NCBI GenBank assembly: GCA_012974305.1
Contig: JAAXQN010000186.1
Span: 1-32,599, forward strand
From: Candidatus Methylomirabilis sp.
Lineage (GTDB): Bacteria; Methylomirabilota; Methylomirabilia; Methylomirabilales; CSP1-5
DNA length: 32,599 bases
Direction of reading: 5' to 3'
Under the pieces are notes generated by a model. That model made no database searches, was not told the origin of the DNA, and saw only the letters and a program-made list of their open reading frames with translations. This document shows positions 13,118-24,416 of this stretch, piece by piece (position 1 is the stretch's first letter; every line of letters begins with the position of its first letter). Made by a program: the position numbers and the translations under genes.

Positions 13118-13217
13118 GACGCTAGAATGCTGGCACGCTGGAATGCTTTCAAGTTTGAAGAGCTCTACGACGTTCTCCTTTTGAGCCTGCTAGCGTCCTA
13201 GCGTTCTAGCGCCCTAG
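13118..13217. repeat. Inverted arms of degenerate 8-nt units (CTAGNACG)
   Basis: In the left arm CTAG, CTGG, CTGG and CTTT occur at 13122, 13130, 13138 and 13146, an exact 8-nt period. In the right arm CTAG occurs at 13190, 13198, 13206 and 13214, again every 8 nt. The reverse complement of the right arm (CTAGGGCG-CTAGAACG-CTAGGACG) matches the left (CTAGAATG-CTGGCACG), so a long imperfect hairpin can form around about 40 nt. The last CTAG contains the stop codon of the membrane protein gene (13214-13216). It may act as a transcript end for that operon. Confidence 0.7.
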
Positions 13218-14002
13218 AAAGGCAATGACGCGGAAACGAGCAGGTAGCGGCCCAGAAATTCACCGAGAAAGACGGTAATGACGGCGACGTAATAGAAGCC
13301 GGTGGCCGCCTGCACATTGGGAAGACGCAGGCAATTCAATATCACCAGCGCGACCACTAACGAGGCACCGATCCCGACGAACATCCGACTCACGAGGAGG
13401 ACCCAGTGCTCTCCCAAAAGTCGCACCCACTCCCCGCTCCCCGGACCAAATCCGTAGACCAGGAGGGTGAAGAGGGCCGGAAGTGCACCCTGGAGCAGAA
13501 TAACCATACAGAAGACATCGGAAACGCGCTTGATGAGCCGGACGGGCAGGTGGGGCTCGTTCAGGTACCGATGCCCCAAGAGCAGCCCGATCAGCGCCAT
13601 CCCGAGGATGAGGGCCGAGGTGAGGGCATTCGTCGTTCCCATAATGACGCCCAACGACCCAGCCGCGGGGATGGGATAGCGCAAAACATCGAAGACCAAC
13701 AGGACCAAGCCTGCCAGGATGGCCAGCCGATGAAGGACTCCTGCTCCAGGACTTCCCGGGAGAAACCAAGTCACCGTAAAGGCCAGCAACAGGGCGGCAA
13801 AAAGGACGCTTAACCACAGCACGAGGCCCCCTTGCCCCATTGAACGCCACAGGGCAAGACCCTCAATCGCAAGGAGAATCAGGCCACAGATCCGATAAAA
13901 TTGGCGGCTGATGGCCTCAGACGGGATTAAGAGCAGGGCCACCATGCCGCCAACCGCGATCTGGTGCAGGAAAAGAACGAAGGTCCGTCCCAGTTGGTCC
14001 AT
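13214..14002 (-). CDS. Multi-pass membrane protein, loosely NrfD/DmsC-like
   Basis: A 262-residue protein with about eight hydrophobic segments spread along its length and short loops, no signal peptide. The last segments (ATGFYYVAVITVFLGEFLGR) and the GHRYLNEP loop recall quinone-binding membrane subunits of the NrfD/DmsC type, but the similarity is weak and I would not assign a function. No partner iron-sulfur subunit is encoded next to it. ATG 14002 follows a weak GAGG; TTG 14011 is the longer alternative. It begins 69 bases after thiC and is probably on the same riboswitch-controlled transcript. Its stop codon lies in the 8-nt-unit repeat. Confidence 0.65.
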   Translation of the reverse strand: MDQLGRTFVLFLHQIAVGGMVALLLIPSEAISRQFYRICGLILLAIEGLALWRSMGQGGLVLWLSVLFAALLLAFTVTWFLPGSPGAGVLHRLAILAGLVLLVFDVLRYPIPAAGSLGVIMGTTNALTSALILGMALIGLLLGHRYLNEPHLPVRLIKRVSDVFCMVILLQGALPALFTLLVYGFGPGSGEWVRLLGEHWVLLVSRMFVGIGASLVVALVILNCLRLPNVQAATGFYYVAVITVFLGEFLGRYLLVSASLPF

Positions 14003-14071
14003 CGTCCTCAACGATCAATAAGCAGGCGTACGGAATGCGCCAGACCGCGCGGAAGCAATCGGCGAAATCTA

Positions 14072-17837: not shown

Positions 17838-18653
17838 CTAGGAATGCAGGAGCGCCCGAAGCGCGCGGAGACTTTCTCCGATTCTGGGACCGTACCAGGA
17901 GAGGAGCTTGCCGTCAATGAAGTGAACGCGACCGGTCATGAGCGCTGGGATGACGTCTTCAAACGGTTTGAAATCTTCCAGATGCCTGGGAAGGAAACGA
18001 TACGGCTCGTCGGAAAGGAGGATGACTTCCGGCTTGAGATCTGCAACTTCCGCTAACGAGATTTGAGGGTAACGCTCGCTCTTGCCGGCGAAAATATTTT
18101 CCCCCCCGCAGGTCCGGAGCACGTCATGGATATACGTATCTCGATTGATGGACATGTACGGCCTGCGCCAGATGGGGCAGAAGCTCCGCACCGGTCCTTG
18201 TCTCGTGGCCTCGGCGGAGATTCCCCGATACACCTCCTCAAGGGATCGAGCGATCGCCCCTGCCTCCTCATCGGTCCGGGTCACACGACCAAGGTCCCGA
18301 ATCATCGCGACTCCCTGCTCCACTGTCCGAGGATAGGTCGTGTAGACGGCAATCCCCATCGCCGCCAAGGCGTCAACATCTTCGCGACGGTTCTCCTCCA
18401 CATTGGCTACGATCAGGTCAGGCCGGAGGGATTGAATCGTTTTGAGGTCTGGATCCTTCTGTCCACCGACTTTCGGCCTTTGAGCAACGCTGGCCGACGG
18501 CTCAGTACAGTAGCGGGTCACGCCCACCAGACGTTCGCCAAGGCCCAGGACGAAAAGGGTCTCAGTGATGCTAGGGACGAGGGAGATGATTCGGGAAGGG
18601 AAAACGGGAAGGCACACGCGCCTCCCCGCTGCATCCACGACGTCAATCGACAT
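17838..18653 (-). CDS. Periplasmic-binding-protein-like metal/cobalamin receptor (BtuF-type)
   Basis: A 271-residue protein of the helical-backbone metal receptor fold (periplasmic binding protein, PF01497 type). It shows the family's RIISLVPSITETLFVLGLG, VGG and LRPDLIVA segments in the first lobe and LKPEVILLS plus the long inter-lobe helix. Close relatives bind cobalamin, haem or siderophores. It has no signal peptide, starting MSIDVVDAAGRRVCLP directly in the domain, so it is either cytoplasmic or carried by another route. No ABC permease or ATPase gene is next to it. The adjacent gene encodes a B12-dependent radical SAM enzyme, so a cobalamin link is plausible but unproven. AAGGGGGG precedes ATG 18653. 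Confidence 0.8.
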   Translation of the reverse strand: MSIDVVDAAGRRVCLPVFPSRIISLVPSITETLFVLGLGERLVGVTRYCTEPSASVAQRPKVGGQKDPDLKTIQSLRPDLIVANVEENRREDVDALAAMGIAVYTTYPRTVEQGVAMIRDLGRVTRTDEEAGAIARSLEEVYRGISAEATRQGPVRSFCPIWRRPYMSINRDTYIHDVLRTCGGENIFAGKSERYPQISLAEVADLKPEVILLSDEPYRFLPRHLEDFKPFEDVIPALMTGRVHFIDGKLLSWYGPRIGESLRALRALLHS

Positions 18654-18726: not shown

Positions 18727-21024
18727 TTATTGGTAATTGAAGAACATGGTCATGGCTCTCCGGGCAAAGGACGCTGTCAGGAAAAGATCCCTGAAAAATG
18801 CAACCGTGAGCCGCAAGGGACGGATATTCCAGAATCGCCAGCTACGCACGTGGTCCCACGTTCTCACCCACAATCTTTGCAGGTCCTGCCGAGAATAGAT
18901 GACCTTGTTGCTCAGGGGATCAAATCTGATGTACTGGAGATCGAACTTTGACGGAAGCCCCTCTCTGAAGCTCGAGTAAGCCTCTCGCCATTCTTGAATC
19001 TTCAGACCATTCCAGGCCTCTTTGTGAAGGTCGCCCAGCTGGTCGAGCCACCTCATGGTGGTCCCATCTTCCGCCACAAGGCGTCCACGAATCTTCTGGA
19101 TCCTGGTCTGGATACCTCCCCATTTGTACAGGAACGTGTCCAGATCTTTGCGACTGATTAGGATCTTCGAGGCGAGGTCTTCAAATGGATCGAGCAACGT
19201 CCTCGCCTTGGTCGGCAGAGACGACTTGGCATTGGCATATGCCTTTTGCCACTCCGCGATTCGCAAGGTCTGCCATATCTCACCTTGAATATGCTGAATC
19301 TCCTCGGAAAATCGCTTTTCCGCCTCACTCCTCGGACGGGTCTGGAGCCAAATTTCCTCCAACTCCTTGAGAAAGCGGGCCCAGGAGACAAAGAGACGTG
19401 TGACCTCCTTCGTCCGCTTCCACAGATGGACCGGTAACGAATCGATGGAGAACCCGGGTCTCCGGGACCGCCAGTCCTTCAGACGGAAAAAGCCGGCAAT
19501 CATCGGGTGTTCCTTCTCGATCAGGGCCGCATTCTTATACCAGATGAGGTTCACGAACAGGTTCCAGTAGACGCCGGGGTTGTGGCTCCATCGTGACAGG
19601 ATCTTGATGAGATTTTCCTTGCTGAAAAACGCTTTCCATGCGTTTACGTACGCCTCGGTCCATTCCTCGGCGGTCATATGGGGATGGTGGACCGTGGCAT
19701 GAAACGAATCCCGCTTGTTGAAATCGGGATCCATCCATTCCCCTCGCTTTTTCATCTCCAAGTGATCGTGAGATCCCGGCAACGGCGTCAGCATAAAGAA
19801 CGACGCCATATCCACATGAATCTCGTCCATGAGATATTGGACATCGCGCGGGACCTGCTCTTTGGTATCGAAGGGAAGGCCGATGATATACCCGGCGTGA
19901 ACATATACACCCGCCTCGTGCCACTCGCGGATGATGCTCGCATACTCTTCGGTCTTGTTCTGCGGCTTCCCGCCGGCTTTGAGATTTTCCGGATTCACGC
20001 TTTCCATGCCGATGAACACTTGGCTACAGCCGGCCTCGGCGGCCAGGCGCACAAAGTCCTTTGGCTTGCGCGCCAGGTCCACCTGCATCGCGAACGAGAA
20101 AGGAATGCCTTCCTGCCGAATTCGGATGAGTACCTCGAAGGTCTCACGCCACAGCTTCTTCCGGGCAAAATTGTCGTCCGTGAAGAAGTAAAAATCGACC
20201 CCGTGTTCCCGATGGTTGTGCCGCACGAGCTCGGCGATCTCCTCAGAACTCCGTTCCCGCATCGTCCGGCCCTGCACATTGATAATGGTGCAAAAGGTAC
20301 ACGCAAAGGGACAGCCGCGGGAGGTGTCCACGGTCCCGAAAGTAGGTCGCGCGAAGTGCTGCATCGTTTTGGGACTTATGACGGGGTGGGGTGCCTTCTC
20401 GATATCTACGAGACTCTTGAGGTCCTGGGCAAAGGAGTACAGAGGCTTGGCTTGCCCGTTGAGGACATCGGCCAGAATCCCTGCCCACTTCCCCTCGACC
20501 TCGCCGGACACGACAATGATTCCCTCGCGTATGAGCTCCTGGATGTCCGGCTCCTGCGGGCCGAGCATGTTGACCGTCCCACTGGTATGGAAGCCGCCCA
20601 TGATCACATCAATCCCGTGCGCGCGAAACTGCTTCCCCAGATCGAACGCCCTCGGAAACTGGTTCGTCTGCACGCCGACCAGACACACGATCAGCTTCGT
20701 AGCAGGGCGGCGGCTCCATTTAACGATTTTCTTGACCGGGATTTTTTCCGTCGTCTCATCAAAGGTATCTACCGCAAATTCGATGTCGCCGAAGAGCCCA
20801 CGCCTCTTGACATCCTCGGTCAAGCCGTTCAAGACACTGAGGGTGTTGCTCGGCAACACCCCTTTCCAAAACCGGATCACATACCCATCGTCGTCATACT
20901 TCGACGGCTTGATCAGAACGATGTGCACGGTTCGGTACTGTTTGGTCTGGGGCAAAAGATCAATATACTCCGAGCTCTGAAGCTCGGGGGAAGCGTCAAT
21001 GACAGGCAGCGGTGCAGGCCCCAC
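18727..21024 (-). CDS. B12-binding radical SAM protein with duplicated helical C-terminus
   Basis: A 765-residue class B radical SAM protein. A cobalamin-binding Rossmann-like domain occupies about 33-200 (with the IMGGFHTSG loop near 141-149), the radical SAM core about 230-450 with Cys238, Cys242 and Cys245 in CPFACTFC, followed by a long helical tail (450-765). The tail contains two similar units (about 578-638 and 665-725) sharing the pattern W-x-x-L-x-I-x-E-W-x-x-A-Y ... LP-x-K ... DP ... K-x-x-x-S-R-x-D-L. Substrate unknown; such enzymes often methylate or rearrange carbon skeletons. GTG 21024 is well supported by AAGGAGG 6 nt upstream. It follows mqnC by 45 bases, so it shares the menaquinone operon. 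Confidence 0.9.
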   Translation of the reverse strand: MGPAPLPVIDASPELQSSEYIDLLPQTKQYRTVHIVLIKPSKYDDDGYVIRFWKGVLPSNTLSVLNGLTEDVKRRGLFGDIEFAVDTFDETTEKIPVKKIVKWSRRPATKLIVCLVGVQTNQFPRAFDLGKQFRAHGIDVIMGGFHTSGTVNMLGPQEPDIQELIREGIIVVSGEVEGKWAGILADVLNGQAKPLYSFAQDLKSLVDIEKAPHPVISPKTMQHFARPTFGTVDTSRGCPFACTFCTIINVQGRTMRERSSEEIAELVRHNHREHGVDFYFFTDDNFARKKLWRETFEVLIRIRQEGIPFSFAMQVDLARKPKDFVRLAAEAGCSQVFIGMESVNPENLKAGGKPQNKTEEYASIIREWHEAGVYVHAGYIIGLPFDTKEQVPRDVQYLMDEIHVDMASFFMLTPLPGSHDHLEMKKRGEWMDPDFNKRDSFHATVHHPHMTAEEWTEAYVNAWKAFFSKENLIKILSRWSHNPGVYWNLFVNLIWYKNAALIEKEHPMIAGFFRLKDWRSRRPGFSIDSLPVHLWKRTKEVTRLFVSWARFLKELEEIWLQTRPRSEAEKRFSEEIQHIQGEIWQTLRIAEWQKAYANAKSSLPTKARTLLDPFEDLASKILISRKDLDTFLYKWGGIQTRIQKIRGRLVAEDGTTMRWLDQLGDLHKEAWNGLKIQEWREAYSSFREGLPSKFDLQYIRFDPLSNKVIYSRQDLQRLWVRTWDHVRSWRFWNIRPLRLTVAFFRDLFLTASFARRAMTMFFNYQ

Positions 21025-22190: not shown

Positions 22191-23306
22191 CTACGCGGCT
22201 ACCATCACGTTATAGAGTGCATCGCGCTCCACTGGCACCCGTCCCGCTTCGTTGACCAGATGGAGGAGCTCCTGATGGTTCAAAACCTGGTGATCGGACG
22301 TGGTTCCCAGGGCATGGGTAATCTCGTAGTGATTCACCGTCCCGTCGAGGTCATCCGCCCCGTACCAGAGGGCCAGCTGGGCAACCTGGGGCGTGATCAT
22401 GATCCAGAAGGCCTTGATGTGAGGAAAATTATCCAGGAGCAGACGAGCGATCGCAATTTCCCGGAGATTCTGTTGCCCCGTGGTCAGCGGGATATGCTCG
22501 AGCTCGGTCCGGGCGGGGTCGAAGGCCAAGGGGACAAAGCATTGAAACCCTTTGGTCTCATCTTGCAGCTCCCGGATGTGGAGGAGATGCTTGACCTTTT
22601 CCTCCACCGTCTCAATATGACCGTAAAGCAAGGTTGCGTTCGACTTGAGCCCCGCGCGGTGGACCTCCCGGGACACCTCAAACCACCCTTCGTTATCTAG
22701 TTTGGCTCGGAAGAGCTCCTCATGGACCCGCTCGCTGAAGACCTCAGCTCCGCCTCCCGGACAGCAGGTCAGTCCCGCATCCTTGAGATCTTCGAGGACG
22801 TCCGCCAGAGGTTTTTTCGCAACTCGGGCGATCTGGGCCAGCTCAATCATCGTAAAGGCCTTGATCTGGGCATCAGGACGGGCCGTCCGGACCGCCGTCA
22901 GAATATCCAGGTAATATTCATACGGAAGCTTGGGGTTGATTCCCGCCACCATGTGGATCTCCCGGATCGCCTGATGGCGGTACTCATCCAAACGGGCGAT
23001 GATATTGTCCGCAGTCAGCACGTAGCCCCTGGGGTCTCCTGGCTTGGCGTAAAAGGAGCAAAATTTGCAGAGCTTATTACAAATGTTGGTGTAATTGATA
23101 TGGAGGTTCCGGACATAGTAAGTGGCACAGCCGTTCATGCGTTCCCGGACGTGGTTAGCCAAGGCTCCCACGGCGGTGAGGTCTAGTGTCTGATAGAGCC
23201 GCAGGCCATCCTCGTAGGAAAGGCGCTCCCCTTTCAGGATCTTCCCGTACAGGTCCGTCAGGCCAGCCCGAGCAACCAGTACTTCCACCTCGACCTCGCG
23301 ATTCAT
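22191..23306 (-). CDS. mqnE: Aminofutalosine synthase
   Basis: A 371-residue radical SAM enzyme that joins S-adenosylmethionine and the enolpyruvyl-benzoate intermediate to form aminofutalosine, the first radical step of the futalosine menaquinone pathway. Cys76, Cys80 and Cys83 (NICNKLCKFC) bind the cluster. CPGGGAEVFSERVH, LLYGHIET and the ADDLDGTVNHYEITHALG segment match MqnE. The start ATG 23306 lies inside an iterated 7-nt repeat (TGAACGG, TGAATCA, TGAATCG), so no normal ribosome site precedes it. The upstream yjbQ stop is 50 bases away, and the pair probably shares one transcript. Confidence 0.95.
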   Translation of the reverse strand: MNREVEVEVLVARAGLTDLYGKILKGERLSYEDGLRLYQTLDLTAVGALANHVRERMNGCATYYVRNLHINYTNICNKLCKFCSFYAKPGDPRGYVLTADNIIARLDEYRHQAIREIHMVAGINPKLPYEYYLDILTAVRTARPDAQIKAFTMIELAQIARVAKKPLADVLEDLKDAGLTCCPGGGAEVFSERVHEELFRAKLDNEGWFEVSREVHRAGLKSNATLLYGHIETVEEKVKHLLHIRELQDETKGFQCFVPLAFDPARTELEHIPLTTGQQNLREIAIARLLLDNFPHIKAFWIMITPQVAQLALWYGADDLDGTVNHYEITHALGTTSDHQVLNHQELLHLVNEAGRVPVERDALYNVMVAA

Positions 23307-23356: not shown

Positions 23357-23785
23357 TTACTCGCCAAGAACCTGGAACTGAACGCTCCGCTCTTGGGGGC
23401 CATCCAGTTCCGCAAAGATGATACTCTGCCAGCGACCGAGGACCACATCTCCAGCGCGAACCGGAAGGGCCAGGGTTCGGGCCAGCAACATCGATCGCAG
23501 GTGTGAACCGGCGTTACCCCGGGTACAGTCGGAATGCCGGGGATCGTTATGTCGGTAGTCGCCGTTCTCCTCGACGAGGTGGGCGAGGATGCTTTTCATA
23601 TCCTCGACGAGGGCGGACTGAAACTCATTAATGAACAGGACGGCAGTCGTGTGCAAGGTGTTCAAGAGCAACACGCCGTCACGAATCGGGTGCTTGATCA
23701 GACAGTCCCGGACCATCTGGGTAATGTCTAACAACTGCATCGACTCCTTGGTCTTGACCGGGATCGTCTCAAAGGCAATTTTCAT
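23357..23785 (-). CDS. yjbQ: YjbQ/UPF0047 family protein
   Basis: A 142-residue member of the UPF0047 family, annotated in databases as secondary thiamine-phosphate synthase enzyme because E. coli YjbQ can weakly replace ThiE. Family landmarks are visible: LLNTLHTTAVLFINE, DYRHND...NAGSHLRSMLLA, and the C-terminal GRWQSIIFAELDGPQERSVQFQ with the conserved GxWQ-hFhDhDGPR pattern. ATG 23785 has GGAGGAAG upstream; GTG 23800 would use that site as coding sequence. Its metabolic role here is unclear. A ThiC gene under a TPP riboswitch lies 7 kb away. Confidence 0.9.
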   Translation of the reverse strand: MKIAFETIPVKTKESMQLLDITQMVRDCLIKHPIRDGVLLLNTLHTTAVLFINEFQSALVEDMKSILAHLVEENGDYRHNDPRHSDCTRGNAGSHLRSMLLARTLALPVRAGDVVLGRWQSIIFAELDGPQERSVQFQVLGE

Positions 23786-23810
23786 ACACTCTTCCTCCAC
23801 GTTGTTGGCA

Positions 23811-24302
23811 TCACCCTGCGTGACTCATTCTCAGTCCAAAATAGACGATAACGGCCCCCAGGGTTGCAGCAGCCAGATACCACCGTTGTAAGGACTGGAC
23901 AAGTTGCATTCCCTTGGCGGCACCCTCCGCGTCGGGCTTCTCGTCTGCTCCGGGAAGCGCCCGGAGCAGCCTCGAACCAAGCGCAAAGAACGTATAGCAA
24001 CTCACCATGACCAGGACGAACACGAAGAGAAGCTTGAGGGCCAGCACCCCAAAAAGCCTGGGGACGTACTCGGGTCCCAGCGTTTCCTTGACCGGTGTCA
24101 GCGCGATTGCTCCTGTAATGACCGCGAGGCCCAAGCTTGCGAGGCTCACAGGATGAAAGATCCGAATCACCCCTGCCAAAAAGTGCAGCCCTTCCGTATC
24201 GAGCCCTCGCCGTTTGAGTGCCGGGATCAGGACTGCCCCCAGGAACACAGTCCCACCCAGGTAGACCACGACTGCCACGGTATGCAGAAATGCCAGGAGC
24301 AC
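23811..24302 (-). CDS. Four-helix membrane protein, CopD/DUF4149-like
   Basis: A 163-residue integral membrane protein with four predicted helices (about 2-25, 53-70, 85-108 and 140-158). The first helix has the LHTVAVVVYLGGTVFLG pattern of CopD-like or DUF4149 proteins, including His7; a second His (FHPVSL) precedes helix two. Function unknown; related proteins are linked to copper or haem handling. GTG 24302 is the first possible start in the frame, with a rather distant GGAGGT. It appears to be the first gene of the operon that continues with yjbQ, mqnE and mqnC. Confidence 0.7.
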   Translation of the reverse strand: MLLAFLHTVAVVVYLGGTVFLGAVLIPALKRRGLDTEGLHFLAGVIRIFHPVSLASLGLAVITGAIALTPVKETLGPEYVPRLFGVLALKLLFVFVLVMVSCYTFFALGSRLLRALPGADEKPDAEGAAKGMQLVQSLQRWYLAAATLGAVIVYFGLRMSHAG

Positions 24303-24416
24303 GCCAGGCCCGCCTGTACCTCCACCGGTACCAACGAAGGGAAAAGCAGTTCCGTACTCTCCCTAAGAGGGCCGGCCTGTCTACGTTCAATCAGCACTGC
24401 GAAAGCCTAACCCCGC

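What the first reader, a model, noticed from the sequence alone, without database searches (positions are those of the whole stretch)
18727..21024. B12 radical SAM enzyme with a duplicated helical tail in a menaquinone operon
Seen: cobalamin domain, CPFACTFC core, then about 315 extra residues in which two units of roughly 60 residues share a W...EW..AY...LP.K...DP...SR.DL pattern. It lies 45 bases after mqnC and before a BtuF-type protein. Inference: an unassigned B12-dependent modification, perhaps of the quinone or a lipid made by this organism; the tail may bind membrane or a partner.
Basis: partly seen in the sequence, partly recalled or inferred. Interest (0 to 1): 0.6.

Follow-up and report, generated by a model that had tools for sequence, protein, structure and literature searches.

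The report
Unassigned B12 radical-SAM lipid-modifying enzyme
A methane-oxidiser-related (NC10) bacterium carries a member of a widespread, uncharacterised family of vitamin-B12-type radical enzymes whose relatives sit in phospholipid-making operons; its position beside menaquinone genes is a local accident of one genus, and it may be the enzyme that puts unusual branches on membrane fats.

Summary
The ORF at 18727-21024 (-) is a 765-aa radical SAM protein with an N-terminal B12-type domain, a CPFACTFC cluster site and a real tandem duplication in its helical tail. Two ~83-residue units align at about 17 SD above shuffles.

The menaquinone reading does not hold. Linkage to mqnC/mqnE was seen only in the window's genus. 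Six genomes of the clade deposited as Deltaproteobacteria/Candidatus Binatia carry the same two-unit form but have neither MqnC nor MenB; in the three checked, the one MqnC-like gene is CofH. Related Rokubacteria-like genomes have MqnC but no orthologue.

The family is uncharacterised, spans many phyla and usually has one tail unit. In about 14 Omnitrophota genomes the gene starts, abuts or sits near an operon with phosphatidylserine decarboxylase and synthase, usually with a second B12 radical SAM. Corrinoid genes flank it in three Omnitrophota and in this genus.

Best explanation: an anaerobic, B12-dependent modifier of membrane phospholipid acyl chains, most likely a C-methylase. In Methylomirabilis it is a candidate for the 10-methyl-hexadecanoate branch, because 14 of 15 orthologue-bearing order genomes lack the usual CFA-type methylase. 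Lipid substrate: about 0.6. This particular methylation: about 0.25.

The parts
18727..21024 (-). B12-type radical SAM enzyme, 765 aa, two-unit tail form
   Evidence: ORF; PF04055; 78-sequence family; AF2 pLDDT 88.4, pTM 0.86
20410..20943 (-). N-terminal Rossmann (cobalamin-type) domain, residues 28-205; invariant D44, G47, Y48, P58, N60, V118, Q119, R125, GGFH 143-146, GE 174-175, E177
20650..20673 (-). Loop after Rossmann strand 3 (V118-Q-T-N-Q-F-P-R125), where OxsB, TsrM and TokK place the residue under the cobalt (PMC13331322)
   Evidence: position from AF2 secondary structure, invariance, literature; functional role inferred
19585..20337 (-). Radical SAM core, residues 230-480
   Evidence: PF04055 residues 234-397; Foldseek to AprD4, TokK, TsrM, CysS, MgmA, OxsB
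20290..20313 (-). CPFACTFC, ligands of the [4Fe-4S] cluster (residues 238-245)
   Evidence: sequence; C238, C242 and C245 invariant in 78
19336..19584 (-). Single-copy conserved tail, residues 481-563 (YW..WY..HPM..GF.R.K.R..RRP), helical, net charge +6
   Evidence: present in essentially all complete homologues; conservation; charge
19084..19332 (-). Tail unit 1, residues 565-647
   Evidence: unit HMM E 9.4e-34
18820..19068 (-). Tail unit 2, residues 653-735
   Evidence: unit HMM E 1.2e-35; unit 1 versus unit 2 z about 17
18733..18819 (-). C-terminal long helix, residues 736-764
   Evidence: AF2
17838..18653 (-). TroA/BtuF-like corrinoid-type binding protein, 73 bases downstream
   Evidence: NF038402 over cut-off, BtuF equivalog sub-threshold; same place in L031 and L059
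21070..22146 (-). mqnC, 45 bases upstream (genus-specific neighbour)
   Evidence: TIGR03699 474.9 bits, over cut-off
22191..23306 (-). mqnE (genus-specific neighbour)
   Evidence: TIGR03700 444.4 bits, over cut-off

Best explanation
This is a class B (cobalamin-type) radical SAM enzyme that modifies membrane phospholipids or their fatty acyl chains, probably under low oxygen. Likely mechanism (inferred from class B enzymes): the [4Fe-4S] cluster held by CPFACTFC cleaves SAM to a 5'-deoxyadenosyl radical, which removes a hydrogen from an unactivated carbon of the acyl chain; methylcobalamin held base-off in the N-terminal Rossmann domain then donates a methyl. The positively charged helical tail (one unit ancestrally, two in this clade) would hold the enzyme on the membrane or on its lipid. 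In Methylomirabilis-type bacteria the product may be the 10-methyl branch of hexadecanoate. Shown: domain anatomy, tail duplication, family breadth, lipid and corrinoid gene linkage in other phyla, no general mqn linkage. Inferred: cobalamin binding, lipid substrate, methylation chemistry, membrane role of the tail. My odds: lipid substrate 0.6; 10-methyl branch 0.25.
For: Operon context: in about 14 Omnitrophota genomes the gene starts, abuts or lies near a run of second B12 radical SAM, phosphatidylserine decarboxylase, CDP-diacylglycerol serine phosphatidyltransferase (TIGR00473 over cut-off) and a LysE-type protein. In G102 it overlaps psd by 4 bases and in G156 it is 3 bases away, with no second enzyme between. 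Other Omnitrophota: acyl-thioesterase (4HBT) 1-9 bases downstream in 4 genomes; thioester/fatty-acyl reductase plus MlaE in L085; fatty-acid hydroxylase in L090. B12: CobA/BtuR adenosyltransferase and ABC-type uptake genes upstream in 3 Omnitrophota (G120, G114, G156), BtuF-like protein downstream here; N-domain matches a PF02310-positive domain. Closest solved folds are class B enzymes and AprD4. Substrate elimination: members live in genomes without menaquinone genes and without hopene cyclase. Lipid phenotype: 10-Me-C16:0 is cited as putatively diagnostic of M. oxyfera (PMC9125203 citing Kool 2012); CMAS (PF02353) was not found in 14 of 15 orthologue-bearing genomes of the order, including the 2,752,854-base single-contig genome G026.
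Against: In Methylomirabilota the gene itself is next to no lipid gene; the lipid linkage comes from one other phylum, at 42-50% identity and with a one-unit tail, so the substrate may differ. AprD4, a top structural and sequence hit, is to my knowledge a radical SAM dehydratase that does not use cobalamin. Methyl branches could come from SAM methylases outside PF02353. One genome (G001) has both the orthologue and a CMAS match. Other neighbours point elsewhere (protoporphyrinogen oxidase, haem-copper oxidases, Crp/Fnr, hemerythrin). No 10-methyl lipid data are known to me for the other carriers.
Confidence: 0.4

Rival explanations
1. A lipid enzyme that does not methylate: it uses the radical to couple, dehydrate, desaturate or rearrange an acyl chain or a lipid head group, with cobalamin as electron carrier or absent, as in AprD4 or OxsB.
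For: AprD4 (a dehydratase) is the best solved hit by sequence and by fold; HpnJ and BchE, neither a simple methylase, are the best NCBIfam hits; same lipid gene neighbourhoods as above.
Against: The N-domain is strongly conserved (GGFH, VQ..QFPR) and is linked to corrinoid genes in two phyla, which argues for functional cobalamin; most solved fold relatives after AprD4 are methylases.
Confidence: 0.2
2. A quinone-modifying enzyme, for example making a methylated menaquinone.
For: Placed between mqnC and a BtuF-like gene in the window's genus; UbiE-like methyltransferase upstream in one Acidobacteriota locus, L066; many carriers have MqnC.
Against: mqn linkage seen in one genus only; six two-unit genomes lack MqnC and MenB; MqnC-bearing Rokubacteria-like genomes lack it. 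Known menaquinone C8-methylases (MqnK/MenK) are, to my knowledge, HemN-type class C enzymes without such an N-domain.
Confidence: 0.1
3. A tetrapyrrole (haem-type) modification, as an anaerobic BchE-like ring enzyme.
For: BchE is the second NCBIfam hit (83.5 bits, cut-off 481); protoporphyrinogen oxidase is directly upstream in 3 Omnitrophota; COX or NorB genes follow the 4HBT gene in others.
Against: Far below the BchE cut-off; the psd-pssA association involves several times more genomes than any tetrapyrrole association; these respiratory neighbours can equally reflect low-oxygen regulation.
Confidence: 0.07
4. A hopanoid-modifying enzyme related to HpnJ or HpnR.
For: HpnJ is the top NCBIfam hit (85.7 bits); all Methylomirabilota examined have a squalene-hopene cyclase match.
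Against: HpnJ cut-off is 577.6 and HpnR 650 bits; no hopene cyclase was found in any of the Omnitrophota examined or in five of six two-unit Binatia-like genomes.
Confidence: 0.05

Closest known systems
Class B (class 1) cobalamin-dependent radical SAM enzymes: TokK, TsrM, CysS, OxsB, MgmA
   Same: Rossmann N-domain, radical SAM core, C-terminal helices; Foldseek E 1e-13 to 1e-15; CX3CX2C; lower-face loop after strand 3
   Different: 13-18% identity; much longer helical tail with unit repeats; unrelated gene neighbourhood
AprD4 radical SAM diol dehydratase (6fd2)
   Same: Best solved match by sequence (E 6.8e-12) and fold (E 3.7e-19, TM 0.72 on target)
   Different: NF033070 score 48.9 against cut-off 500; 453 residues, no extended tail; sugar substrate
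HpnJ / BchE families
   Same: Best NCBIfam hits over the radical SAM core (85.7 and 83.5 bits)
   Different: Far below cut-offs; occurs without hopene cyclase
TIGR04072 lipid (ladderane) B12/radical SAM
   Same: Lipid-associated B12 radical SAM; weak match (57 bits, cut-off 360); the partner radical SAM in the Omnitrophota operon also matches weakly (74.9 bits)
   Different: Not over cut-off; no long repeated tail is described for it that I know of
MqnK/MenK menaquinone C8-methylases
   Same: Radical SAM; proposed quinone link by position
   Different: Class C, HemN-type architecture (own knowledge); no cobalamin-type N-domain

Membership tests
Radical SAM superfamily | PF04055 over cut-off and CX3CX2C motif | tested here: met
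   74.2 bits against 29.5; CPFACTFC, cysteines invariant
Class B cobalamin-dependent radical SAM | N-terminal Rossmann B12-type domain | tested here: met
   AF2 alpha/beta fold; hhalign 95.7% to a PF02310-positive domain; PF02310 itself not matched directly
Class B cobalamin-dependent radical SAM | Actual cobalamin binding and requirement | not testable with these tools
   Only indirect: corrinoid-gene linkage and conserved lower-face loop; AprD4 has a similar layout and, to my knowledge, uses no cobalamin
Class B radical SAM methylase | Transfers a methyl group to an unactivated carbon | not testable with these tools
   Needs biochemistry
HpnJ (TIGR03471) | Score over equivalog cut-off 577.6 | tested here: not met
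   85.7 bits
HpnR (TIGR04367) | Score over equivalog cut-off 650 | tested here: not met
   38.5 bits
BchE (TIGR02026) | Score over equivalog cut-off 481 | tested here: not met
   83.5 bits
AprD4 (NF033070) | Score over equivalog cut-off 500 | tested here: not met
   48.9 bits
TIGR04072 lipid B12/radical SAM | Score over equivalog cut-off 360 | tested here: not met
   57.3 bits
Menaquinone pathway component | Conserved linkage or co-occurrence with mqn/men genes | tested here: not met
   Linkage in one genus only; carriers without MqnC and MenB; MqnC carriers without it
Phospholipid-operon enzyme | Conserved operon with phospholipid genes | tested here: inconclusive
   Met in about 14 Omnitrophota genomes; not seen in Methylomirabilota or the Binatia-like clade

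The most novel reading that the evidence does not exclude
This family is a second, oxygen-independent and B12-dependent route to mid-chain methyl-branched membrane lipids, acting where CFA-type methylases are missing; it would explain the biosynthesis of the 10-methyl fatty acids used as biomarkers of NC10 methane oxidisers, with the repeated tail as a lipid-gripping module.
Probability: 0.22. Interest if true: 0.8.

Novelty: new variant of a known kind. Interest (0 to 1): 0.5.

Why it matters
The family is widespread in uncultured soil, groundwater and sediment phyla, conserved over its whole length, and no model in the libraries searched describes it. If it acts on membrane lipids it gives one concrete gene to test for lipid biomarkers whose biosynthesis is, as far as I could find, unassigned: the 10-methyl fatty acids of denitrifying methane oxidisers. 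It also shows how a neat-looking operon (mqnE-mqnC-radical SAM-btuF) can mislead when it is confined to one genus.

Tried and rejected
Menaquinone function from gene order: rejected as a general link by the neighbourhood survey and by MqnC/MenB searches. Hopanoid function: disfavoured by the hopene cyclase search. Plasmid homologues in Phyllobacterium and Rhizobium (36-39% identity): the annotated Phyllobacterium neighbourhood is uninformative and the Rhizobium record carries no annotation. Nitrospirota survey: the class reached held only 4 genomes, so known lipid phenotypes could not be compared. Literature searches found nothing on this family; Kool 2012 itself is not held. UbiA-proteo search: no genome over cut-off. 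Amphipathicity of the tail: suggestive only. Window genes at 23782-24390 and 13214-14011: no family hit.

Full report
What is there. The window lies in a 2.82-Mb draft genome whose named relatives are Candidatus Methylomirabilota, NC10. The ORF at 18727-21024 (-) encodes 765 residues. It has an N-terminal Rossmann domain, a radical SAM core with CPFACTFC, and a helical tail; AlphaFold2 with 78 homologues gives mean pLDDT 88.4 and pTM 0.86. Upstream by 45 bases is mqnC, then mqnE; downstream by 73 bases is a TroA/BtuF-like protein.

The tail. Units at residues 565-647 and 653-735 align at score 107 against shuffles of 25.9 +/- 4.7, and a unit HMM finds both at E below 1e-33. Most other family members, in Omnitrophota, Acidobacteriota, Entotheonella relatives and others, have one recognisable unit; a few have none detectable. 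The two-unit form makes up one strongly supported clade of 36 sequences from Methylomirabilota and from genomes deposited as Deltaproteobacteria, Proteobacteria or Candidatus Binatia (support 100/98), and occurs separately in two Acidobacteriota, L089 and L096. So the duplication is a lineage-specific elaboration of an older single unit. Residues 481-563, with the HPM..GF.R.K.R..RRP signature, are conserved across the family.

Not a menaquinone system. Among the loci examined, mqnC/mqnE are beside the gene only in the window's genus (window, L031, L051, L052, L059). In the single-contig relative G026 they are about 1.25 Mb apart. Six genomes with the two-unit form (G060, G061, G063-G066) have no MqnC over cut-off and no MenB. 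Three of their MqnC-like hits were examined and are CofH at 454-474 bits. Nine Rokubacteria-like genomes of the same class have MqnC but no orthologue, only distant radical SAM relatives at about 30% identity over part of the protein. Another quinone cannot be strictly ruled out, since UbiA-like prenyltransferases are present. Draft genomes can miss genes, but six of six is consistent.

Lipid context elsewhere. In Omnitrophota the gene is patchy (27 of 237 genomes, short paralogues included), which makes its neighbours informative. In about 14 of these genomes it starts, abuts or lies near a block with phosphatidylserine decarboxylase, CDP-diacylglycerol-serine phosphatidyltransferase and a LysE-type protein, usually with a second B12-binding radical SAM (DUF4070) first. 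Gaps are around 50 bases to the second enzyme and the genes of the block mostly abut or overlap; where the second enzyme is missing the gene itself overlaps psd by 4 bases (L171) or is 3 bases away (L172). Four other Omnitrophota have a 4HBT acyl-thioesterase 1-9 bases downstream, one has a thioester/fatty-acyl reductase and MlaE lipid transport upstream, and one has a fatty-acid hydroxylase. Hopene cyclase was not found in any Omnitrophota examined nor in five of the six Binatia-like genomes, so hopanoids are not a shared substrate. Phospholipid acyl chains are a substrate that all carriers have.

Cobalamin. The N-domain is homologous to a PF02310-positive domain. The loop after strand 3, where OxsB, TsrM and TokK place the residue under the cobalt (PMC13331322), is nearly invariant as V-Q-x-x-Q-F-P-R. 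In three Omnitrophota a corrinoid adenosyltransferase and ABC-type uptake genes lie upstream, and a BtuF-like gene follows it in the window, L031 and L059. The caution is AprD4, the best solved match, which to my knowledge has this layout but does not use cobalamin.

Proposed function. An anaerobic B12-dependent lipid acyl-chain modifier, most likely a C-methylase. The specific proposal for Methylomirabilis is the 10-methyl branch: 10-methylhexadecanoate is cited as putatively diagnostic for M. oxyfera (PMC9125203 citing Kool 2012), orthologues occur in records named Methylomirabilis (L032, L038, L069), and 14 of 15 orthologue-bearing genomes of the order had no CMAS-type methylase at E 1e-25, including G026. 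G026 has 2,752,854 bases in one contig, which I recall as the size of the M. oxyfera genome; the tool does not name it. That CFA-type methylases are the usual source of 10-methyl chains (in Actinobacteria) is own knowledge. This step is inference.

Other signals. Crp/Fnr-type regulators occur near the gene in five loci from the Binatia-like clade and Acidobacteriota, and hemerythrin, NorB or COX genes near others, which fits low-oxygen use of an oxygen-sensitive radical enzyme. The tail is net positive and partly amphipathic, compatible with but not proof of membrane association.

Verdict. Novelty is moderate: an undescribed family within a known enzyme class, with a directly testable hypothesis.

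Noticed in passing
L113:6723-8495 (-) and L114:75-1847 (-) (G000 and G006): A second, 590-aa member of the same family (39-41% identical, no detectable tail unit) in the window's own genome; in L113 it is followed by an LpxD-like hexapeptide acyltransferase.
   Followed up: partly
L088:2212-3816 (+) and equivalents in other Omnitrophota loci: A second B12-binding/DUF4070 radical SAM enzyme directly after the focal gene in the psd-pssA operon, also unassigned.
   Followed up: partly
L084, L091, L098 (Omnitrophota): Focal gene, then a 4HBT thioesterase, then different respiratory genes: hemerythrin/cytochrome c, NorB-like, or COX2-COX1/3.
   Followed up: partly
L047, L048, L061, L080, L089: A Crp/Fnr-family regulator cluster near the focal gene across two distant lineages; one member (L047) was checked against Pfam.
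   Followed up: partly
L089, L096 (Acidobacteriota): Two-unit tails outside the main two-unit clade, suggesting a second independent duplication of the same unit.
   Followed up: partly
L166, L167, L184 (Omnitrophota): Protoporphyrinogen oxidase-type gene directly upstream of the focal gene (31-116 bases).
   Followed up: no
G060, G061, G063-G066: Carriers with the two-unit form seem to lack both known menaquinone routes yet most have a UbiA-like prenyltransferase; their quinone is unclear.
   Followed up: partly
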